DNA of 60,936 bases from positions 1-60,936 of IMG/VR virus record IMGVR_UViG_3300028592_000010; one strand, written 5' to 3'. Below, one piece after another: positions 1 to 60,936 of the stretch. Position 1 is the stretch's first letter; every line of letters starts with the position of its first letter. This stretch comes from a virus. The position numbers and the translations under genes were made by a program. The notes under the pieces were generated by a model that saw nothing but the letters and a program-made list of their open reading frames with translations, was not told the origin of the DNA and did not search any database.

Positions 1-132
1 CCCCGAGGGGCCCCGGCTGGGGCCCCCTCACTGCATGTGAGGAGGAGTGTGTTGGAACCGGTTCTGGAGCCGTTCATCGGCGACATCCGGGTGCAGGCCT
101 ACACGTTCCCGTCGCTGGCGGGGCGGCTGCCG
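1..132. repeat. left copy of the terminal direct repeat
   Basis: Bases 7-132 are identical to 60811-60936. The match continues outward except that a G run is four long here and five long in the right copy. It contains a terminator hairpin and the start of the first gene. The overlap shows a circular or terminally redundant molecule; the one-base difference suggests a homopolymer error in this copy. Confidence 0.95.
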
Positions 133-9073: not shown

Positions 9074-9468
9074 CCGACTGGGAAGCGCTGACCGCGCTCC
9101 AGATCATTGACCGGCTGCGCGACACGATCGTGGCCATGGGCCAGTACGTGGCCGGCCTGGAGTCCGAGGCACTGGAGACCGAACGCTCGGTGGCGTTCTG
9201 GACCGAGGAGGCCCGGCGCTACGCGGGCAACGCCGACTACTGGCGGGCGCGGACCACCGAGGCGGAGCGGGTCATACAGGCCGCGCGCGCCATGCCGGGG
9301 CACGAGCCGACCGAGGGGGAGCCCATGTGGTGCTGCCGCCTCCAGGACGCCCTGGCGACCTACGATCAGTGGCGGAAGGGGGGTAGCGATGATCGAGTTG
9401 CGAGTGCGGAGCCGACTTCGCCAGGAGGACCTGCTGCCCAAGACCGGCAAGGTGCTGGGCCCGGCTGA
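9070..9468 (+). CDS. helical protein, 3' end uncertain
   Basis: GTG 9070 starts a protein with a long amphipathic helix (ALETERSVAFWTEEARRY). The final 30 residues overlap the dioxygenase gene by 80 bases and look like out-of-frame sequence. A six-G run just before 9384 is followed by TAG in another frame, so the natural end may be near 9386 if that run is one base short. Confidence 0.5.
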   Translation: MTDWEALTALQIIDRLRDTIVAMGQYVAGLESEALETERSVAFWTEEARRYAGNADYWRARTTEAERVIQAARAMPGHEPTEGEPMWCCRLQDALATYDQWRKGGSDDRVASAEPTSPGGPAAQDRQGAGPG

Positions 9469-10270
9469 CTACGACGTGCTGCTCACCGGCCCCGCCAAGG
9501 TGCTCAAGCCGGACGGCAAGCCACTGTGCGTCTACCTTCCCGGCGCCCTCCGCGAATGGTCGCAGAGTGACACCATCTACGCCATTTTGCACGGGCTACG
9601 CACACACACCACCAACAACCGGGGCATGAGCGGCGGCGCAGGCGTCGACACCTCCCCCAGCGGCAAGCGCTACGCCCAGACCACCGCGTCCACCATCATC
9701 GGCGCCTTCGACCCGAACAGTTACCGCCGCTACTGCCGCCTCACCGCCTGGACCGGGCGCAACCTGCCGCAGTGGGAGGCGCTCCAGCCGTTCCTCGCCG
9801 CCATCGCCGAGCGGATGGCCGAGCACGTTCCCGACCGGCACGGGGCCCAGATGGCCGAGGTCATGCGCACCCAGCCCGAGTGGGTCGTGCCGGGCACCCC
9901 GTTCACCACGGTCACGGTCAACAACACCTACCCGACCGGGATGCACACCGACAAGGGCGACCTCGATGCCGGGTTCTCCACCCTCGCCACACTGCGCCGA
10001 GGCGGCGCGTATACGGGCGGCAACCTGATGTTCCCCGAGTACCGGTGCGCCGTGGACATGCGCGACGGAGACCTGCTGCTCATGGACGCCCACGAGTGGC
10101 ACGCCAACGCCGACATCGTCTGTGCCTGCGGAAACTCCATCCGGGCGATCTGTCCGACGTGCGGGGCGGAGCGCATCTCGGTGGTGAGTTACTTCCGCAC
10201 CGACATGGTCAACTGCAAGGACGCGGCCACCGAGGAACGGCGGGCCGCCGAGTGGTGGGCGAAGCGGTGA
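9389..10270 (+). CDS. TET/JBP-family 2-oxoglutarate/Fe(II) dioxygenase
   Basis: The ATG follows GGAAGGGGGG. The protein has 293 residues and a double-stranded beta-helix signature: VNNTYPTGMHTDKGD supplies HxD (H186, D188), DAHEWHAN supplies the distal His (H235 or H238), and ERISVVSYFRTD supplies the Arg near 270 that binds 2-oxoglutarate. This pattern is typical of phage TET/JBP enzymes that oxidise the methyl group of thymine or 5-methylcytosine in DNA. Between the distal His and the Arg lies a CACGN...CPTCG insertion, a likely zinc knuckle. It could supply the hydroxymethyl base used by the kinase/transferase set at 4463-6838. Confidence 0.85.
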   Translation: MIELRVRSRLRQEDLLPKTGKVLGPADYDVLLTGPAKVLKPDGKPLCVYLPGALREWSQSDTIYAILHGLRTHTTNNRGMSGGAGVDTSPSGKRYAQTTASTIIGAFDPNSYRRYCRLTAWTGRNLPQWEALQPFLAAIAERMAEHVPDRHGAQMAEVMRTQPEWVVPGTPFTTVTVNNTYPTGMHTDKGDLDAGFSTLATLRRGGAYTGGNLMFPEYRCAVDMRDGDLLLMDAHEWHANADIVCACGNSIRAICPTCGAERISVVSYFRTDMVNCKDAATEERRAAEWWAKR

Positions 10271-17624: not shown

Positions 17625-17689
17625 GGTGTGAACGCGAGGGCGCCGCCGAGAGGCCCCTAACCCCCACGGCCCACTCCCCTACGGACCAA

Positions 17690-17728
17690 CGAGAACGGCC
17701 CCGAGCTTGATGCTCGGGGCCGTTCTCG
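17690..17728. terminator. bidirectional terminator hairpin
   Basis: A perfect 17-bp stem (17690-17706 with 17712-17728) has a TTGAT loop. It separates the plus-strand DUF397 gene from the minus-strand tRNA region and can stop transcription from both sides. Confidence 0.8.
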
Positions 17729-17744
17729 GTCCATGACGGGAACG

Positions 17745-17815
17745 GGACCGCACGGGGAGTCGAACCCCGCCTAGGCGCTTTAGAGGCGCTTGTGCTGCCG
17801 ACACACCCTGCGGTC
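17745..17815 (-). tRNA. suppressor tRNA, anticodon CUA (reads UAG)
   Basis: Read on the minus strand, GACCGCA pairs with TGCGGTC over seven bases. The D stem is GTGT/GCAC with GG in the loop. The anticodon arm is AGCGC-CTCTAAA-GCGCC with U33 followed by CTA, and the T arm is CGGGG-TTCGACT-CCCCG. The anticodon (17781-17783) is CUA. Weak points are an A-C mismatch closing the anticodon stem, G at position 8 and a four-base variable loop. CCA is not encoded. Charging specificity cannot be seen. Confidence 0.7.
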
Positions 17816-17839
17816 AAGGCGGTGCCCGAGGTCAAGGCG

Positions 17840-17963
17840 GCTCGGCGCCTTGTTCGGCTGCTCTACCGGGCTGAGCTACCCCACTCCCCGAGGGGAGCGT
17901 GGCGGGATTCGAACCCGCGACCTGCCGATTACCTGTGAAGTAAGCCGGGCCTGCGCACCGAGC
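17840..17963 (-). tRNA. candidate circularly permuted tRNA (3' half before 5' half)
   Basis: On the minus strand a canonical 3' half comes first (TCGGC-AGGTC, T arm GCGGG-TTCGAAT-CCCGC, CACGCTC; 17928-17895). A canonical 5' half follows after about eight bases (GAGTGGG, D arm GCTC..GAGC, GCCGA; 17886-17854). GCCGA and TCGGC form a perfect anticodon stem, and the acceptor strands pair at six of seven positions. Outside them GCGCCGAGC (17848-17840) pairs with GCTCGGTGC (17963-17955). The anticodon cannot be read, and one extra G sits after the acceptor strand. Two degenerate tRNA fragments are the alternative. Confidence 0.35.
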
Positions 17964-18033
17964 ACCACCACCGGACGATCGCCGACACGTGCGGGCCAGC
18001 GAGGTTTCCGGGTACCTCTTGAGTTGTGCACCC

Positions 18034-18087: not shown

Positions 18088-18218
18088 GGGCCAACTTGGG
18101 GCCCTCCGAGAAATTGCACCTCGCCTTCGCCCCCCGAAGGGCGCGTGCTCTGGTTACACCTGAGGGCCATGGGGGCCGGTCTGGGCCCGGGGCAAGCTAG
18201 CCTCCCAGACCGGCACCG

Positions 18219-18294
18219 AAACGGGAGTCGGATTCGAACCGACGACCTCCAGCTTATGAGGCTGGCGAGCACAACCGAACTGCTCCATCCCGTC
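18219..18294 (-). tRNA. tRNA-Met (CAU)
   Basis: All arms are present on the minus strand: acceptor GACGGGA/TCCCGTT (first pair G-U), D arm GAGC..GCTC, anticodon arm CCAGC-CTCATAA-GCTGG, variable AGGTC, and T arm GTCGG-TTCGAAT-CCGAC. The anticodon is CAU. The regular first pair argues for an elongator rather than initiator tRNA. CCA is not encoded. Confidence 0.93.
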
Positions 18295-25783: not shown

Positions 25784-28759
25784 GTGGCCCGTGCTCGCAC
25801 CAGCGCCATCGCCGTAACGGAGGACCCGGCCCTCACCGCCGCCGCCACCCCGATCGCCCTCGACGGGACCTCGTGGCGCGCGTTCAAGCTCGGCGACCAG
25901 CGCTGGCAGGAGGAGGCCTGGCGCCACTACGACATCTGCGGCGAGTTGCGTTACGCCTCCAACTGGCTCGCGAACGCGGTGAGCCGGTGCCGCCTGTACG
26001 TGGCCGAGGTCGACAAGCGGGGGCGCCCCGGCGAGGAGACCAAGGACGCCGAGGTCCAGATGCTCGCCGAGTCGATGTTCGGCGGACCGGCCATGAAGGC
26101 CGAGGCGCAGCGCCTGCTCGGCATCGGCCTGTACGTGCCCGGTGAGAGCTACATCGTGGCCGAGGACGTTGCCAGCGCCAGCAAGGACATCTGGTACGTG
26201 TGCTCCACGTCCGAGGTGCACCGCGACGGCACCGAGGGGATCTCGGTGGACCGGTCCAACCTGTACGGCGGCGGACGGGTCAAGCTCCGCAAGGGCAAGG
26301 ATCTGCTCATCCGGTGCTGGACCCCGCACCCGCGTCGCTACGACGCGGCCGACTCGTCGGTGCGCGCGGTGCTCCCGGTGTTGCGCGAGATCGAGCAGTT
26401 GACGAAGAAGGTCTTCGCCGAGATCGACTCCCGGCTGGCCGGGGCCGGCATGGTGTTCGTGCCCGAGGAGATGAGCTTCCCGGCCGGCCCGAAGGATCCC
26501 CCGGGCGTGGGCGGGCTGGCCGCCAAGATGATCCGCGCGGCCCAGCAGTCACTCCAGGACCAGTCGTCCGCCTCGGCGCTGGTGCCCCTGTTCGTCACCG
26601 CCCCGGGCGAGTTGCTGGACAAGGTCAAGCACATCACCTTCGCCACGCCCATGCAGGCCGAGACGCTGACCAAGCTGGACAACGCTATCCGCCGCCTGGG
26701 CCTCGGCCTGGACATTCCGCCCGAGGTGCTGCTCGGCCAGGGCGACACCAACCACTGGTCGGCGTGGCAGATCGAAGAGTCGACCATCAAGATCCAGGTC
26801 GAGCCGATCCTGGTGCGCATCTGCCAGGCGCTGACCGAGGGTTACCTCCAGGCCGCCCTGAAGATCGCCGGCAAGGACCCAGAGAAGTACGTCGTCTGGT
26901 ACGACGCGGCGGCCCTGGCCGTGCGGCCCAACCGCGAGGCCGACGCGCGCGAGTTGAACGCCATGGGCGTCGTCTCGGATGAGACCGTGCGCACCGAGGG
27001 CAACTGGGGCGACGAAGCGGCCCCGGACGACGAGGAACGGGCCCGCAAGCTCGCCGAGAAGCTGGTGCTGGCCCAGCCGGCCCTCATCTCCAACAAGGAC
27101 ATCCAGAAGGCTCTCGGGGTGGACTGGGAGATCCAGGACCCCAACGCGGCTCCGGACCAGGGCCTCGGGCCGGACGAGTTCGGGCCCCCCGGGGAGGACA
27201 ACGGCCGGGCACTGCCGCAGTTCCCGGCCGACGAGACCCCCGCCCAGGAGGCGGCGCTGCTCATCGGGGCCGACTTCATCGTGCGTCGCGCGCTGGAGCG
27301 CGCGGGCGCGCGCCTGCTCACGCGCGCGCGCAAGGCTTCCGGTCAGTTCACCTCCACCCCGGCCCTGGAGGTCCACCTCCAGGTGGCCATCCCGGCCGAG
27401 GAGGCGCCCCGCCTGCTGGACGGTGCGTTCGTCTCGGTGCCGGACCTGGCTGGCCGGGTCGGCATGGAGGCGCCCGTCCTGGAGGACATGCTCACCGTCT
27501 ACACGACCGCCCTCCTGGTGCGCAACCAGCCCCACGACTACGAGGGGTTCTGTACCTACGTGGACCAGGCGCTGGAGTTGATCGGCCACCAGCGGTGCGG
27601 CCAGTTCTGTCGCAACCCACTTCACCCCGGACCTTGCAAGGGGTGGCGGCATCAGATGGACGTGGCCCCGGCCGACCGCCGGGACCACACCCCCGACCGC
27701 ACTCGCCAGCGCGACCGCAACCGGGCCATCCGCGAGCAGCGGCGTTCCCAGCGTCAGCAGACCACTACCTCGCCACCCGCCAAGAAGGCTCCGGCCAAGC
27801 GTGCGAGTGAGTCGGCCCGTCACGCCCTGCCCTCCGGGGAGCGGGGTAACGACGGCTTCGAGCCGGCCACCGAGGGCCGCAACCTTGGTGAGCCCGACCG
27901 ACTGGAGCAGGTCTCCCGCTCGATGCAGTCGCTGATGCAGGACTGGTCGCGGGCGGAGCGCGAGCGCATTGATGCGCTGAGCCAGAACATGAACGAAGGC
28001 TGGCCGCGCACCGACGCTGAGCTACCGCCCGGGCCACCCAACAACGGCTACCAGGGCAACGCGGCGATGGCCGCCCAGCAGGGGTTCGACGGACTGCCCC
28101 TGGTGGCTACCGAAGGAGACCTGGACCGGGCGGTGCAGGCCGGTGGCGTCGAGTTCTGGCGTGGCGTGGGCGACGGCTGGGGGGGCTTCGACCAGCGCTT
28201 CTCCCAGCAGGGCCAGTCCACCACCGGCGAACAGATGATCGAGCAGTTGCGCACCGGCACCGCCTACTGGGGCTACGGCGTGTACGGCAACGGCATCTAC
28301 GGCGGAGACGACCAGATCGTGTCCCGGGAGTATGCGGCCGGCACCCGGTTCGGCTACCCCACCGGCGGCCCGGCGACGCGCAACGGGGCCGTGGTGCGGA
28401 TGGTGCTGCGGCCGGGCGCGCGCGTCATCGAGTACGACGACGCCAAGACGGCCCGCCAGGAGTGGATTCGGCGCATGCGCGACGTTCCGGCCCAGCGGCG
28501 CATGACCCCGTCCGAGCGAAGCGACTGGGACACTCACATCCAGCGCACCTCCACCGACCTGGGCGTGTGGGCGGCCATGATGGGCTACGACGCCATCTAT
28601 GCCGATGAGGCCCAGTACGTCCGTTCCGAGGGCGACAACTCACGGCATTGGAACATCCTGAACCGTACGGCGGTCCTGGTGTCCGAACACACCGAAGTGG
28701 TGGAGCGCGGCGTGACCCGCACCCCTGAGGGCGCTAGCCAGCGACGGAGAAGGTACTGA
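25784..28759 (+). CDS. portal protein fused to an ADP-ribosyltransferase-like domain
   Basis: GTG 25784 follows GGGGAGGG. Residues 1-450 read as a portal protein (RWQEEAWRHYDICGELRYASNWLANAV, then PPEVLLGQGDTNHWSAWQIEE). Residues 480-600 continue the usual actinophage portal C-terminus. Near 604-617 comes the Cys/His motif CGQFCRNPLHPGPC and a basic KKAPAKRA linker. Residues 760-990 look ART-like: VEFWRGVGDG, YWGYGVYGNGIYGG, MGYDAIYADE and NILNRTAVLVS. At 991 residues it is about twice a normal portal. The ART part may modify host proteins if delivered with DNA. Confidence 0.8.
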   Translation: MARARTSAIAVTEDPALTAAATPIALDGTSWRAFKLGDQRWQEEAWRHYDICGELRYASNWLANAVSRCRLYVAEVDKRGRPGEETKDAEVQMLAESMFGGPAMKAEAQRLLGIGLYVPGESYIVAEDVASASKDIWYVCSTSEVHRDGTEGISVDRSNLYGGGRVKLRKGKDLLIRCWTPHPRRYDAADSSVRAVLPVLREIEQLTKKVFAEIDSRLAGAGMVFVPEEMSFPAGPKDPPGVGGLAAKMIRAAQQSLQDQSSASALVPLFVTAPGELLDKVKHITFATPMQAETLTKLDNAIRRLGLGLDIPPEVLLGQGDTNHWSAWQIEESTIKIQVEPILVRICQALTEGYLQAALKIAGKDPEKYVVWYDAAALAVRPNREADARELNAMGVVSDETVRTEGNWGDEAAPDDEERARKLAEKLVLAQPALISNKDIQKALGVDWEIQDPNAAPDQGLGPDEFGPPGEDNGRALPQFPADETPAQEAALLIGADFIVRRALERAGARLLTRARKASGQFTSTPALEVHLQVAIPAEEAPRLLDGAFVSVPDLAGRVGMEAPVLEDMLTVYTTALLVRNQPHDYEGFCTYVDQALELIGHQRCGQFCRNPLHPGPCKGWRHQMDVAPADRRDHTPDRTRQRDRNRAIREQRRSQRQQTTTSPPAKKAPAKRASESARHALPSGERGNDGFEPATEGRNLGEPDRLEQVSRSMQSLMQDWSRAERERIDALSQNMNEGWPRTDAELPPGPPNNGYQGNAAMAAQQGFDGLPLVATEGDLDRAVQAGGVEFWRGVGDGWGGFDQRFSQQGQSTTGEQMIEQLRTGTAYWGYGVYGNGIYGGDDQIVSREYAAGTRFGYPTGGPATRNGAVVRMVLRPGARVIEYDDAKTARQEWIRRMRDVPAQRRMTPSERSDWDTHIQRTSTDLGVWAAMMGYDAIYADEAQYVRSEGDNSRHWNILNRTAVLVSEHTEVVERGVTRTPEGASQRRRRY

Positions 28760-31700
28760 TGGACGTTGCACTGTCGCGCCGGCTGGCGCGAGCCCTCCAG
28801 CACGAGGCCGATATCGAGGAACAGGACTCGGTGGTCGAGGAGGCCCAGCTTGTCGACACCTGGGAGCAGTTGCCCCAGGACATCCGCGAACTGATCGAGG
28901 ACCTGGAGGACCGCCCCTACCGGGAGGGCGTGCCCTACGCCTGGCTGGGCGACCCGCGCGAGACCGAGAAGGCCTGGGCGCTGGAGGCCCAGTCGCACAA
29001 CCGAAGCATGACCGCCTCGGCGGGTGACTACCACGAAGAGTTCTGCCGCAACCCCTTGCACCCGGGCCCGTGCAAGGGGTGGAGGCAGGCGCTGCCCGAG
29101 GGCGACTCCCGGCGGCGGCCCCGCAAGGACGTGGCCCCGGCCGAGTCGTCTCGTCGTCGCAAGCGTGAGGTCACCCAGCGCCTGGACACCAAGGCCGTGG
29201 AGGACGAACTGCGGCGCATCCAGGACACCGCGCCACCGAGCGTGCTCCCACCCGATGCCGCCCAGGCCGCCTATGCCGACCTCCAGGCCGCCGCCGGGGG
29301 CGACACTGGCGCCCAGGAACGCATCACCGCCCTGGCCCGGACCACCTATGAGTACCAGGACGATGGGGTGGACGGGCTCCAGGCAATCGTGCGCAGTGTC
29401 GTGCCGAGCAGGGGGACCTCCAATCGCGGCGCCGGCATGACGGTCAGCGTGGAGATCCTGGACCGGCAGGGCCGCCACGTCGGGATGGCCACCCGTTCCT
29501 GGCGCGTGCCGCCCGGCTCGGACAAGGTGCAGGTACGCCACTCGTCCTTCAGCCTCAACGACAACGTGCAAGGCGGCGGGTTCTCCCGCCGCTACAACGC
29601 TCGGGCCTACCAGGCCTACCGCGAGATGGGCGTGGGCCGAGTCGGCCTCACCGCCGACGATACGGTGGGCGGCGCGGCCTGGGCGCTGGAGGGCTACGAC
29701 TGGACCGACCAGGCCGACCTGGAGGCCGTCGCCAACCGCTGGCGGCGCGTGCACGGTCGGCTCCAGCCGGGGCCGATCCGTGACCAGATCAACGAGTTGC
29801 TGCTGCGCACCCGCCGGGAGGACTGGGATGCGGGCCGGCACCCTTCGCCGTATGAGTTCGCCATGATCGGCTCCGAGTTCACGACCCAGCGGCCCATCCG
29901 GGGCACCAACCGCACCTACACCTCGTGGATCGGCAAGGAGGTCATGGCCCAGACCGAGTGGGAGGGCGCCCTCGGCATCACCGAGCCCAACCGGCCCGAG
30001 GCGAACCCACCGGGGCGCACCGCCGCCGCCGAACCCGACATGGCCGGCTGGGACGAGCGCACCGAGTTCCTGCAAGCGGTCAACGAGTTGGCCCTGGCCT
30101 ACGCCAACACCGTGGCCGAGGACGTTGCCGCCGAGGACCTGTATGACCCACCGGGCGACTACCCAGAGCACCACCACCTGTTCGCCGCCGACGAGGAGAC
30201 CTCGGACGTTTACACCGACCTCGCCGATGACCTGATGTCCGAGTGGGGCCGTGACCAGCCGGACACCGAAGAGGACGACCCGGATGCCCTGGTGGCGCAC
30301 GCGGGCTGCGCCGAGTTCTGTCGCGCGCCCTTGCATCCTGGCCCGTGCCGGGGCTGGCGCTCCCGGCTGCGGCAGAAGAACCCCGAACGGGCCCGCAAGC
30401 TCGACGAGCGCGACCGGGCCCGGCGGGAAGGCCGCACCCCCGCCAAGAAGGCACCCGCCAAGAAGGCCGCCCCGGCGGCACCGACTGAGACTCCCCAGCA
30501 GCGCCAGGCGCGGCTGGACCAGGAGCAGTTGGAGACCGCGCGCCTGGGCGCCGAGGCCCAACGGCAGCGCGAACTCCTGCGTACGCGACCCATGGAGCGG
30601 GTGAGCCCGGAGGGTTACAGCACGGCGCGCTTCCAGGACGACCTCTATGTGGCAGCGCGCGCCCAGAACCCCCGAGGCCTCACCCAAGAGGAACGCACCC
30701 GAGCGGCCGAGGCGAACCAGCGCCTGACCGCCTGGGCGCGAGCCGTCTGGCAGCACGATGACCCACAGAGCGGCCTGCGGGCCGAGGTCCAGTACGTCAC
30801 CGCAAGTGCGCCCTACGGCCAGCCGGACCGGCCGAACATGCAGATCAACCTTGTCATCCGCGATGCTCGTGGCCGACAGGTGGGCACCTCTACGCGCCAG
30901 GTCGGCGTCGGCGTGCTGGCCAGCGGTGGGCGGGACACCTTGCAGGCCTATCACGCCTTCTTGCGGCTCGACCCAAGTGTCCAGGGCGGCGGCTTCGCTG
31001 ACCGTTACAACGCGCGCGCCTACCAGGCGTACGCCGAGATGGGCGTCACCCGCGTCGGTGTCCACGCGGACATCGACGTGGGCGGTTACACCTGGGCGAC
31101 GCAGGGGTTCGACTTCGAGACCAGACGCGACTTGGATGGGTTCGTCAGCCGAGCCACCTCGGTACTGCGTTACGGCAACCCGGACCCGGCGACACGGGCC
31201 GAGGCCCAGCGGCTGATTGACCGTTCGACCGAGGCGCACTGGCGGGCTGGCACTCACCCGACTCCGTACGAGTTCGCCATGTTGGGGCGGGAGCAGGTCA
31301 GCCTGCGCCAGGCTGGGCGGAACCCGGACGGAACGGTGCGGCACATCGTGACGTGGCCCGGCAAGGACATGCTGCTCGGCTCGTCCTGGCACGGGGTTCG
31401 GCCGATCACCTTGCCGGTGCGCCGTGGCGGCCCGTCGCCGTTCACGCGCGCAGGTCGGCCCCGTAAGGCCGCCAAGAAGGCTGTGACGGCGGCGGCGGAG
31501 GCACCCATGGTGGAGGAGTTCCCAGAGGACCCGAGCGGACCGGGCTGGGACGACCGGGCTGGGTTCCTGGACGCGGTGGGCGAGTGGGCCTCGGCGTGGG
31601 CCAACACGGTCGGCGACACCGTGCCGGTACACCAGGAGGACGCGCACCCGAATCGGGACGGGGAGACCGACTACTACGCCAACCAGCACCTCATCTCGGC

Positions 31701-31878
31701 CAGCCCGGCTGAGCAGCAGGCGTTCCTTGACATCGCCGAGGAGGTGCTGGCCGAGTGGGGACGCGACGATCAGGGAGAAATCCCGCTGGAGCCCGAAGCC
31801 GATGAGCAGCCCGGAGGGGTGACGGCTTCGGGCGAGCCCACGGCCCCGTTTCCCGGGCCACCTGACCTTTTGCCGTAA
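28759..31878 (+). CDS. head-associated protein with two GNAT-like modules
   Basis: The 1039 residues contain two similar units of about 400 residues. Each starts near a Cys/His motif (FCRNPLHPGPC at about 95, FCRAPLHPGPC at about 520) and a basic KKAP-type linker. Each then has a core with VQGGGF..RYNARAYQAY, a VGGxxWAxxGxD turn, HPSPYEFAM or HPTPYEFAM, and a WxGKxM strand. The QGGGF loop and following helix resemble an acetyl-CoA site of GNAT enzymes, a tentative fold call. Each unit ends in an acidic tail. ATG 28759 overlaps the portal stop. Confidence 0.6.
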   Translation: MDVALSRRLARALQHEADIEEQDSVVEEAQLVDTWEQLPQDIRELIEDLEDRPYREGVPYAWLGDPRETEKAWALEAQSHNRSMTASAGDYHEEFCRNPLHPGPCKGWRQALPEGDSRRRPRKDVAPAESSRRRKREVTQRLDTKAVEDELRRIQDTAPPSVLPPDAAQAAYADLQAAAGGDTGAQERITALARTTYEYQDDGVDGLQAIVRSVVPSRGTSNRGAGMTVSVEILDRQGRHVGMATRSWRVPPGSDKVQVRHSSFSLNDNVQGGGFSRRYNARAYQAYREMGVGRVGLTADDTVGGAAWALEGYDWTDQADLEAVANRWRRVHGRLQPGPIRDQINELLLRTRREDWDAGRHPSPYEFAMIGSEFTTQRPIRGTNRTYTSWIGKEVMAQTEWEGALGITEPNRPEANPPGRTAAAEPDMAGWDERTEFLQAVNELALAYANTVAEDVAAEDLYDPPGDYPEHHHLFAADEETSDVYTDLADDLMSEWGRDQPDTEEDDPDALVAHAGCAEFCRAPLHPGPCRGWRSRLRQKNPERARKLDERDRARREGRTPAKKAPAKKAAPAAPTETPQQRQARLDQEQLETARLGAEAQRQRELLRTRPMERVSPEGYSTARFQDDLYVAARAQNPRGLTQEERTRAAEANQRLTAWARAVWQHDDPQSGLRAEVQYVTASAPYGQPDRPNMQINLVIRDARGRQVGTSTRQVGVGVLASGGRDTLQAYHAFLRLDPSVQGGGFADRYNARAYQAYAEMGVTRVGVHADIDVGGYTWATQGFDFETRRDLDGFVSRATSVLRYGNPDPATRAEAQRLIDRSTEAHWRAGTHPTPYEFAMLGREQVSLRQAGRNPDGTVRHIVTWPGKDMLLGSSWHGVRPITLPVRRGGPSPFTRAGRPRKAAKKAVTAAAEAPMVEEFPEDPSGPGWDDRAGFLDAVGEWASAWANTVGDTVPVHQEDAHPNRDGETDYYANQHLISASPAEQQAFLDIAEEVLAEWGRDDQGEIPLEPEADEQPGGVTASGEPTAPFPGPPDLLP

Positions 31879-32032
31879 TCCTCTCCACCCGGGCCCGTGC
31901 AAGCGCATCTTCGACCGGATCAAGTACCGCAAGCGGCGGCCCCTCACGGGCCATTACACCTTCGGGCGCAGTCGTTGGTGGGATGCGGTTCCCGAGGACG
32001 ACGAGCGGCCGACGCCAGTCAGGGACCTGACC

Positions 32033-32851
32033 GTGCAGTTGGCGACCCGGGACTACACGATCCGCAACGGCACCGCGTACAAGATCGACGGCGTGGCCTA
32101 CCTGGTGGAGCACGACGACACCCCGGACGGCATCCGGGTGGGTCACGAGGTGCTTCAGCACGTGTTCAACTTGCACCGCGACAGCGTGGGCCCGCACGAC
32201 CCTGGCTACCAGCGGGCCTACCTGGTGGCCGAACGGGAGAGCCCGGCCGAGGCGTTGTACCGCCAGGCAGGCCGGTTCGGCAACGACCCGGACCAGCACC
32301 TCGCCGCAACGGCCGGTGACGGCTCGTCGTCGATCTGGGGCTACACCAGGTCGTGGTTCCGCCACGACCGCCTGGGCCCGGTGCTCCAGCACGAGTACGG
32401 CCACAACGTCGGCGCCCTGGCCCCCCGCATGCCCAGTGGTGAGCGGGTGGACGATTCCCCCGAGTGGCACGCGGCCGGTATGCAGGACGTGCGCGGCGGC
32501 GGCCCGTCACAGCGGGTGAGTAACGGGCGCATCATCCCCGGCACGGCGATGGGCAACCGGGGGCTGTATATCAACGCGGGCGCGATCCCGGGCACCAAGT
32601 ATGAGATCGGGGTCACGCCCTACGGGACCAGCAACCAGCGCGAGGACTTCGGCGAGTCCGTGATGATGTACCTGCACGGACAGATCGGGGTGGGCGTGCC
32701 GCAGGGGCACTCGGGTGAGGTGCCGATCTACTTTCGGGACTTCTTCCCGCACCGGGCCGCCATGCTCGACGCCCTGTTCCCCGATCACGCTACTGAGCAG
32801 TTGGCTCAGATTGCACGAGAGCGGACTTCCCCGACTCAGGGAAGTAGCTGA
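32033..32851 (+). CDS. zincin metallopeptidase domain, upstream part out of frame
   Basis: GTG 32033 is the first start codon in frame. Coding clearly begins earlier: from 31868 this frame encodes FCRNPLHPGPCK, the fourth copy of the local motif, but no start codon lies between it and a stop at 31822. The product is probably joined to the preceding gene by a +1 shift at CTTTTG (31867-31872) or by a sequence error. The protease part has HEYGHN (H120, E121, H124 from GTG 32033), the zincin zinc site, and a later MMYLHG segment. It may process head or host proteins. Confidence 0.65.
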   Translation: MQLATRDYTIRNGTAYKIDGVAYLVEHDDTPDGIRVGHEVLQHVFNLHRDSVGPHDPGYQRAYLVAERESPAEALYRQAGRFGNDPDQHLAATAGDGSSSIWGYTRSWFRHDRLGPVLQHEYGHNVGALAPRMPSGERVDDSPEWHAAGMQDVRGGGPSQRVSNGRIIPGTAMGNRGLYINAGAIPGTKYEIGVTPYGTSNQREDFGESVMMYLHGQIGVGVPQGHSGEVPIYFRDFFPHRAAMLDALFPDHATEQLAQIARERTSPTQGSS

Positions 32852-32951
32852 TGGAGAACGCCTCGTCGTCCTCGACCTCCACCGACGCGGCAGGCGCGGC
32901 ATCGGTGACCGGCAGGCCGGTCTCGTCGTGGTACTGGACCTCTTCACTCAT
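32790..32951 (-). CDS. possible small acidic antisense gene, 53 aa
   Basis: A minus-strand frame begins ATG at 32951 and reads as an acidic protein (SEEVQYHDETGLPVTDAAP) ending in TAG inside the metallopeptidase gene. A competing plus-strand frame (32851-33006) overlaps the peptidase stop as TGATG but is Ser/Thr-rich and less protein-like. Both share third positions, so codon bias cannot decide. Confidence 0.35.
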   Translation of the reverse strand: MSEEVQYHDETGLPVTDAAPAASVEVEDDEAFSISYFPESGKSALVQSEPTAQ

Positions 32952-32968
32952 GACCCTGAGTATGGAGC

Positions 32969-33616
32969 GTGTCGGTGATCCAGAGCACGCACGCCTCCTG
33001 CACTGAGCAGTTCTGCCGCGCGCCGCTGCACCCCGGCCCGTGCAAGGGCTGGAAGCGCCAGCTTGACGTGCCCTCGGCCCAGCGGCGGACCAAGAGGCAC
33101 GAGGCGGACGTGCGGGTGGTTCCGCTGGGACGCGGCGCGGGGCGGCGCGTGCGACCGCCCAGCGGTGTGCGGCGGCGCCCGGACGCGAGCTACCGCGACC
33201 TCCCCGCCGAGGCGCAGGCCCAGGAACGCCAGCGGGTAATCAACGCGGCGCTACCTCATGCGGACCTGGCCGCCCAGATCGACCAGATGGTCCAGAACGG
33301 CGGTAGCGCCCGGGCGCTGCGCCACACCCTGTCGGGCGCCCTGGGCGAGCACCTGAGCACTCGCCAGCGCAACGCGCTGCTCGCGCTGGTGGACCGGCCC
33401 GAGGACCTGCGGGCGGCGGTTCGGGCCCAGGCGGCCCGGGAGGGCGTGGAGGTGCTGGGCCGCACCGAGGACGCGGCGCGGTTCGACCAGCGGCTGCACG
33501 AGTCGATCGGACCAGCCATCGCGCCCGGCGCACCCGTTACCGTGGTGAGACCCGGAGCCCGCCTGTGGATCGGGGAGGACGTGCTGATGCACAGTCGGAT
33601 GCAGGTGCAGGAATGA
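32969..33616 (+). CDS. Cys/His-motif head protein with GrpE-like C-terminus
   Basis: GTG 32969 gives 215 residues. CTEQFCRAPLHPGPCKGW at about 10-27 is the fifth motif copy, followed by a basic segment. The C-terminus (GVEVLGRTEDAARFDQRLHES, then APVTVVRPGARLWIGEDVL) resembles the beta domain of GrpE-type exchange factors. That match is weak, so I call it only GrpE-like. It overlaps the MuF-like gene. Confidence 0.6.
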   Translation: MSVIQSTHASCTEQFCRAPLHPGPCKGWKRQLDVPSAQRRTKRHEADVRVVPLGRGAGRRVRPPSGVRRRPDASYRDLPAEAQAQERQRVINAALPHADLAAQIDQMVQNGGSARALRHTLSGALGEHLSTRQRNALLALVDRPEDLRAAVRAQAAREGVEVLGRTEDAARFDQRLHESIGPAIAPGAPVTVVRPGARLWIGEDVLMHSRMQVQE

Positions 33617-60803: not shown

Positions 60804-60936
60804 CCCCGAGGGGGCCCCGGCTGGGGCCCCCTCACTGCATGTGAGGAGGAGTGTGTTGGAACCGGTTCTGGAGCCGTTCATCGGCGACATCCGGGTGCAG
60901 GCCTACACGTTCCCGTCGCTGGCGGGGCGGCTGCCG
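60804..60936. repeat. right copy of the terminal direct repeat
   Basis: Identical to the left end apart from one extra G in the hairpin G run. It re-enters the first gene, so the true circular genome is about 60.8 kb. Confidence 0.95.
60808..60833 (+). terminator. terminator hairpin after the DUF932 gene
   Basis: A perfect 11-bp stem (60808-60818 with 60823-60833) has a GGCT loop, nine bases after the stop. The left copy has one G fewer in the stem. Confidence 0.8.

What the first reader, a model, noticed from the sequence alone, without database searches (positions are those of the whole stretch)
17840..17963. Possible circularly permuted tRNA gene
The 3' half of a tRNA precedes the 5' half by about eight bases. 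The two halves form a perfect anticodon stem (GCCGA/TCGGC), six of seven acceptor pairs, and an outer nine-pair helix (17840-17848 with 17955-17963) that would bring the ends together. Permuted tRNAs are known from a red alga and some archaea; I know of no settled phage case. The anticodon loop cannot be defined.
Basis: partly seen in the sequence, partly recalled or inferred. Interest (0 to 1): 0.75.

Follow-up and report, generated by a model that had tools for sequence, protein, structure and literature searches.

The report
Phage tRNA-mimicking Y RNA
The apparent back-to-front tRNA gene is a known type of regulatory RNA, a bacterial Y RNA that imitates a tRNA with its parts in rotated order; it is mildly unusual because this apparently complete phage genome carries the RNA but not the gene for its usual protein partner, Ro60.

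Summary
It is not a tRNA gene. The element, correctly 17819-17968 (-), is a bacterial Y RNA of the YrlA type, whose tRNA-like module is known to be circularly permuted relative to tRNA. A covariance model built from 48 Ro60-adjacent homologs, without the window, scores it 119.6 bits (E 7e-30). All six helices are conserved and most pairs covary. Homologs lie just upstream of Ro60 (TROVE) genes in 68 of 71 testable viral loci and 40 of 40 actinobacterial chromosomal loci. Phage Y RNAs are already reported. Two points are less ordinary. This genome has a 126-nt terminal repeat, so is probably complete, yet encodes no detectable Ro60, nor does a syntenic relative's fragment; host Ro60 is the likely partner (inferred). 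And about a third of related Y RNAs carry a canonical 5-bp/7-nt anticodon-arm mimic, some of them deposited as tRNA genes. New member of a known kind.

The parts
17819..17968 (-). Y RNA (YrlA type), whole element
   Evidence: R2 model built without the window: 119.6 bits, E 7.2e-30; Rfam RF02553 38.3 bits at 17834-17948, below gathering score 69
17959..17968 (-). P1 outer stem, 5' strand GTGGTGCTCG
   Evidence: 10 pairs with 17819-17828; 8 of 10 pairs show changes on both sides in 48 homologs
17819..17828 (-). P1 outer stem, 3' strand CGGGCACCGC
17952..17958 (-). 5' side of conserved internal loop, GUGCGCA (putative Ro60-binding site)
   Evidence: GGUGCG and AG of the consensus at least 90% conserved in 48 homologs; binding role inferred
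17829..17837 (-). 3' side of conserved internal loop, CCUUGACCU
   Evidence: consensus GAUCUCGGGC, positions at least 90% conserved in 48 homologs; binding role inferred
17944..17951 (-). P2 5' strand GGC-C-CGGC (1x1 mismatch in the middle)
   Evidence: pairs with 17839-17846; all 7 pairs show changes on both sides in homologs
17839..17846 (-). P2 3' strand GCCG-A-GCC
17929..17943 (-). 5' linker hairpin TTAC-TTCACAG-GTAA (7-nt loop); about a third of homologs hold an anticodon-arm mimic in this linker
   Evidence: in the window itself supported only by folding
17924..17928 (-). P3 5' strand TCGGC (equivalent of tRNA positions 39-43)
   Evidence: covaries: TCGGC/GCCGA here, CCAT/ATGG in L026, TCAAT/GTTGA in L006
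17854..17858 (-). P3 3' strand GCCGA (equivalent of tRNA positions 27-31)
17902..17918 (-). T arm mimic GCGGG-TTCGAAT-CCCGC
   Evidence: T stem never varies in the 7-sequence set; loop TTC[GA]A[AG]T in nearly all of 48 homologs
17882..17901 (-). closed acceptor-like hairpin CACGCTCC-CCTC-GGGGAGTG
   Evidence: 6 of 7 pairs show changes on both sides in homologs; loop 1-11 nt
17860..17876 (-). D arm mimic GCTC-AGCCCGGTA-GAGC, preceded by UA (as U8-A9)
17689..17728 (-). strong hairpin downstream of the RNA gene cluster, probable terminator
   Evidence: sequence; also present in L022; terminator role inferred

Best explanation
The element is a phage-encoded bacterial Y RNA of the YrlA type, about 150 nt (I put this identification alone at about 0.95). 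Its paired ends (P1, the conserved internal loop and P2) form the basal stem that in known Y RNAs binds the ring protein Ro60/Rsr. Its upper part (P3, T arm, closed acceptor-like hairpin, D arm) folds like part of a tRNA with the parts in circularly permuted order. Because this apparently complete genome encodes no Ro60, I think the RNA most likely works in trans: it binds the Ro60 of the actinobacterial host and, through the tRNA-like module, changes what that Ro60 (and possibly PNPase) gates or degrades during infection. Shown by sequence: homology to the Ro60-adjacent RNA family, the secondary structure, no detectable Ro60 in this record, and Ro60 genes in many actinobacteria. Inferred: transcription, binding to host Ro60, an effect on host RNA metabolism, and that the host is an actinobacterium with Ro60.
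For: Model R2 (48 Ro60-adjacent homologs, window excluded): 119.6 bits, E 7.2e-30. Covariation in those 48: 30 of 37 pairs change on both sides (shuffled 18.7, slid 10-15), 95.9% of cells paired. YrlA is the best Rfam match to the element. Elements upstream of Ro60: 68 of 71 testable viral loci fetched by Ro60; 10 of 11 TROVE-bearing records of the first pattern scan within about 1.6 kb on the same strand; TROVE in 29 of 31 records found by motif alone that have the RNA; 40 of 40 actinobacterial chromosomal Ro60 loci. The window keeps the conserved internal-loop motif of Ro60-adjacent members. Syntenic relative L022 keeps the RNA at 88.5% identity over 148 nt, with P2 changed but still paired. 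Literature: YrlA has a domain like the D, T and acceptor arms of tRNA and a basal stem that binds Rsr (PMC8394870); the Y RNA structure 6CU1 superposes on tRNAs with circular permutation (PMC11472068); several phages are reported to have YrlA (PMC7765460).
Against: No Ro60 in this genome by Pfam TROVE or by a phage-Ro60 HMM, so the usual genomic link is missing. The Rfam score is below the curated cut-off. The single-sequence minimum-energy fold is not the covariation structure, which is about 5 kcal/mol higher, although a fold with P1, P2 and P3 lies within 0.5 kcal/mol of the minimum. Nothing is known of transcription. The host is not identified, so whether it has Ro60 is unknown.
Confidence: 0.55

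Rival explanations
1. A Y RNA passenger: acquired with or without a Ro60 gene that was later lost, and no longer functional in this phage.
For: No Ro60 in this genome; close homologs nearly always have one.
Against: Conserved at the same syntenic place in relative L022, with stems kept paired, while most of the surrounding intergenic DNA no longer aligns; conserved motifs retained.
Confidence: 0.2
2. A Y RNA that works without Ro60 as a soluble tRNA decoy, for example for anticodon nucleases or tRNA-modifying enzymes of the host.
For: No phage Ro60; T- and D-loop residues preserved; a competitive-inhibitor role against an anticodon nuclease has been suggested for YrlA (PMC7790460).
Against: The basal stem with its internal loop is as conserved as the tRNA-like module, which suggests a partner for that stem.
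Confidence: 0.2
3. A true circularly permuted tRNA gene whose 3' half and 5' half are processed and joined into a functional tRNA.
For: tRNA parts in permuted order; perfect P3 stem; intact T and D arms.
Against: The acceptor-like stem is a closed hairpin with a loop of 4 nt here and 1-11 nt in homologs; the open end of P3 leads to a conserved Y stem rather than an anticodon loop; no covariation for the proposed outer helix; homologs lie next to Ro60.
Confidence: 0.02
4. Remnants of two adjacent decayed tRNA genes, the 3' part of one followed by the 5' part of the next.
For: The element sits in a cluster of tRNA genes, one of which looks decayed; plain tandem tRNAs match the same simple pattern in some contigs.
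Against: Compensatory changes in P1, P2, P3 and the acceptor-like hairpin, all of which link the two 'remnants'; strong model score; conserved position upstream of Ro60 in many genomes.
Confidence: 0.02

Closest known systems
Rfam RF02553 YrlA (bacterial Y RNA)
   Same: Permuted T arm - acceptor-like hairpin - D arm module on a long basal stem formed by the two ends; alignable over the whole model.
   Different: Scores 38.3 bits against a gathering score of 69; has a linker of about 20 nt with ACUUC between P2 and P3 that the RF02553 consensus lacks; this genome has no Ro60.
Ro60-adjacent Y RNAs of actinophages and Streptomyces (family defined here by model R2)
   Same: All six helices, conserved GGUGCG..AGG / GAUCUCGGG internal loop, UA before the D arm.
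   Different: Those sit mostly 20-50 nt (up to about 1.6 kb) upstream of a Ro60 gene, often as two or more copies including short ones; the window has one copy, in a tRNA cluster, without Ro60.
Circularly permuted tRNA genes
   Same: 3' tRNA part precedes 5' part.
   Different: No separable acceptor ends and no definable anticodon loop; a stable closed module on a Y stem instead.

Membership tests
Bacterial Y RNA, YrlA type | tRNA-like module with T arm before D arm joined by an acceptor-like hairpin | tested here: met
Bacterial Y RNA, YrlA type | Long basal stem formed by the two ends of the RNA, with conserved internal loop | tested here: met
   P1 and P2 pair and covary; motif retained
Bacterial Y RNA, YrlA type | Gene near a Ro60 (rsr) gene | tested here: not met
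   No TROVE protein in the 60.9-kb record, none by phage-Ro60 HMM; met for nearly all homologs. Adjacency is a genomic habit rather than a property of the RNA, so I keep the family assignment by homology but lower the claim of a Ro60 partner
Rfam RF02553 | Score at or above the curated gathering score of 69 bits | tested here: not met
   38.3 bits. Ro60-adjacent homologs also fall short (44.6-55.9 bits in L007, L121, L236, L252; none reported for L255), so the cut-off excludes this branch. Filed with the actinobacterial Y RNA branch by homology, not as RF02553 by Rfam's rule
Bacterial Y RNA, YrlA type | Physical binding to Ro60/Rsr; modification by TruB and Dus enzymes | not testable with these tools
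   T loop TTCGAAT and GG in the D loop are present in sequence
Circularly permuted tRNA gene | 3' half precedes 5' half | tested here: met
Circularly permuted tRNA gene | Separable acceptor ends that can be matured (discriminator/CCA, 5' leader) | tested here: not met
   Closed hairpin, loop 4 nt here, 1-11 nt in homologs
Circularly permuted tRNA gene | Definable anticodon loop formed by joining the termini | tested here: not met
   P3 opens into the conserved P2/P1 stem; proposed outer helix not conserved

The most novel reading that the evidence does not exclude
A phage that carries a Y RNA but no Ro60 uses it in trans to capture or reprogram the host's Ro60 ring (and through it host RNA decay), so that the phage supplies the RNA and the host the protein. 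In addition, a large part of the Y RNA branch to which it belongs mimics all four arms of tRNA, anticodon arm included, in circularly permuted order.
Probability: 0.4. Interest if true: 0.6.

Novelty: new member of a known kind. Interest (0 to 1): 0.4.

Why it matters
It removes a false lead (a phage permuted tRNA gene) and replaces it with a defined RNA family that current annotation misses: Rfam's cut-off rejects the tested members of this branch, and some deposited phages have these RNAs annotated as tRNAs. A phage with a Y RNA but no Ro60 would be a natural test of whether Y RNAs act in trans on host Ro60. The anticodon-arm mimic in about a third of related Y RNAs extends the known reach of tRNA mimicry, if it is not already described.

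Tried and rejected
Permuted tRNA: rejected on the closed acceptor-like hairpin, Y stem and genomic context. Tandem decayed tRNAs: rejected on covariation, although some pattern hits elsewhere are plain tandem tRNAs, e.g. L005, L012, L015, L025, L027. Divergent Ro60 in the window: none by TROVE or by a phage-Ro60 HMM without filters, best E 0.91. RtcB RNA ligase (partner gene in some Ro60 operons): none. DNA search of deposited phages with the whole tRNA region: among the 40 records listed of 263, only Xanthomonas phages matched at the Y RNA itself. Chen et al. 2014, the primary paper on bacterial Y RNAs, is not in the held library, so its alignments could not be compared. A paper search for Y RNA with Ro60 and Streptomyces found nothing.

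Full report
Observation. On the minus strand a T arm (GCGGG-TTCGAAT-CCCGC, 17918-17902) is followed by an acceptor-like hairpin (17901-17882), a short spacer ending in UA, and a D arm (GCTC-AGCCCGGTA-GAGC, 17876-17860). TCGGC (17928-17924) and GCCGA (17858-17854) pair perfectly. ARAGORN finds tRNA genes on either side, a CTA-anticodon gene at 17744-17815 and tRNA-Met at 18218-18294, but none in the element itself. So the permuted order is real.

Identification. With permissive thresholds Rfam reports RF02553 YrlA over 17834-17948 (-), 38.3 bits, E 9.2e-7, below the gathering score of 69. A pattern scan of IMG/VR for a T arm followed by a D arm gave 26 stretches. Some are plain tandem tRNAs, but many carry no overlapping tRNA. 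The window and six clear relatives were aligned and a structure was written by hand: P1, internal loop, P2 with a 1x1 mismatch, a 5' linker, P3, T arm, closed acceptor-like hairpin, D arm. Fifteen of 37 pairs show changes on both sides (shuffled 6.5, slid 2-7).

Test with the window left out. Model R1 from that alignment was run on loci fetched because they encode Ro60. Hits lie on the same strand, mostly ending some 20-50 nt before the Ro60 start. Counting L043-L115 by hand in that table, 68 of 73 loci have a hit at E 1e-5 or better; of the five others, two (L054, L095) are cut off at the Ro60 start, leaving 68 of 71 testable. Many loci have a further short copy. Forty-eight strong hits from Ro60 loci, without the window, L022 and L017, were aligned to the model; being fitted to R1, their pair counts lean towards its structure. 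In them 30 of 37 pairs change on both sides (shuffled 18.7, slid 10-15) and 95.9% of cells pair. RNAalifold on the same alignment predicts 35 pairs, 25 with double changes; it keeps P1, P2, T arm, acceptor-like hairpin and D arm but does not predict P3. Model R2 from this set scores the window 119.6 bits, E 7.2e-30. The window's letters are not in R2, though R1, which guided its alignment, did include them.

Context in relatives. Eleven of 20 records searched (the window and 19 pattern-found records) have a TROVE protein. Read from the coordinates, ten of these (two nearly identical) place the RNA upstream of it on the same strand, within about 1.6 kb; in the eleventh (G019) the RNA lies some 7 kb upstream. 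A separate motif scan, CGGTGCGNAGGN7TACTTC, led to 35 further records: 31 have the RNA by R2, and 29 of those have TROVE. Forty actinobacterial chromosomal Ro60 loci, mostly Streptomyces, all have R2 hits, nearly all just upstream. Ro60-adjacent homologs also miss Rfam's cut-off (44.6-55.9 bits), and one, in L255, is instead called a tRNA by Rfam at 32.0 bits. This explains why the branch goes unannotated.

The window as an orphan. The record carries an exact 126-nt direct repeat at 7-132 and 60811-60936, which suggests a complete genome of about 60.8 kb, although IMG/VR lists it among linear records. It has terminase, portal, major head, tape measure, tail, endolysin, replication and RecT genes. 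Portal and capsid matches are almost all in phages of actinobacteria. It has no detectable Ro60 and no RtcB. L022, from a syntenic relative's 23-kb fragment, keeps the RNA in the same place at 88.5% identity; that fragment also has no TROVE. L017 (36.9 kb) and L144 (45 kb) are two more orphans, in records that may be fragments. Since many actinobacterial chromosomes have Ro60, I infer that the RNA acts on host Ro60; this step is not shown.

How it would work. In the literature the YrlA basal stem binds the Ro60 ring (Rsr), and the tRNA-like domain acts as effector, reported to bind PNPase and to be modified by DusA and TruB (PMC8394870). The Y RNA structure 6CU1 superposes on tRNAs with a circular permutation (PMC11472068). 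A role as competitive inhibitor of an anticodon nuclease has been proposed (PMC7790460). Some jumbo phages are noted to carry TROVE proteins (PMC7824862), and several phages are said to have YrlA (PMC7765460). The present element keeps the conserved internal loop and the T- and D-loop residues.

A side result on the family. The linker between P2 and the T arm was collected from all loci held at the time: 196 distinct sequences, related to each other to an unmeasured degree. In a fixed register 63 form a 5-bp stem with a 7-nt loop; with TTC kept and the rest shuffled the mean is 2.9 and the maximum 8; other loop lengths give 0-3, except 9 (15, probably many of the same hairpins with one pair opened, not checked one by one). 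In the 63, position 32 is C in 89%, 33 is U in 92%, 37 is a purine in 92%, 38 is A in 97%, and 34-36 vary; nearly always 4-5 nt lead on to the T stem; stem pairs 30-40 and 31-39 each take several Watson-Crick forms. This looks like an anticodon arm. An earlier, looser count in any register gave 95 of 188 linkers against 26.5 shuffled. The RF02553 consensus has only a few bases there. In the window the linker is of another type: TTAC-TTCACAG-GTAA, supported by folding only. Two deposited Y RNAs with such a hairpin overlap annotated tRNA genes: tRNA-Thr in Xanthomonas phage 10KY502B, loop CTTGTAA, and tRNA-Ser(gct) in Streptomyces phage Alone3, loop CTGCTAA.

Limits. The structure was drawn from these sequences, so cells-paired figures lean towards it; double changes are the better measure. 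Single-sequence folding of the window gives a different minimum, about 5 kcal/mol below the covariation structure, and the energy is only modestly below shuffles (z -1.65). Expression, binding and host are unknown. The primary paper on bacterial Y RNAs is not in the held library, so I cannot say whether the anticodon-arm branch or orphan phage Y RNAs are already described there; 'new member of a known kind' is the cautious rating.

Noticed in passing
L121:1120-1256, L122:1413-1564 and the wider set of loci: About a third of 196 distinct Y RNA linkers form a 5-bp/7-nt anticodon-arm mimic (C32 U33 NNN R37 A38), absent from the RF02553 consensus; at least two such Y RNAs in deposited phages overlap annotated tRNA-Thr and tRNA-Ser genes.
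   Followed up: partly
window 17744-17815 (-): CTA-anticodon tRNA (ARAGORN tRNA-Pyl, Rfam tRNA 40.1 bits), a possible amber suppressor; L022 has a CTA tRNA too. TAG ends 20 of 83 roughly predicted genes, so it is probably a normal stop here.
   Followed up: partly
window 18097-18168 (-): Probable decayed tRNA-Arg: 93% identical to an ARAGORN-called tRNA-Arg(tcg) in L022 but one base shorter in the anticodon arm and not called in the window.
   Followed up: partly
window 27605-33046: Five copies, 1.1-1.6 kb apart, of a 36-nt repeat encoding roughly FCRNPLHPGPCK, in the portal-to-capsid region.
   Followed up: no
window 9107-10267 (+): Protein related to families that include queuine tRNA-ribosyltransferase (phrog_24024, phrog_6059).
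   Followed up: no
L004:5211-5287 and L008:11667-11743: Permuted T/D module with a second D arm upstream and no match to the Y stem; may be a different arrangement or fused remnants.
   Followed up: no
window 7-132 and 60811-60936: Exact 126-nt direct terminal repeat, offset by 6 bases from the start, consistent with a closed circular assembly.
   Followed up: yes
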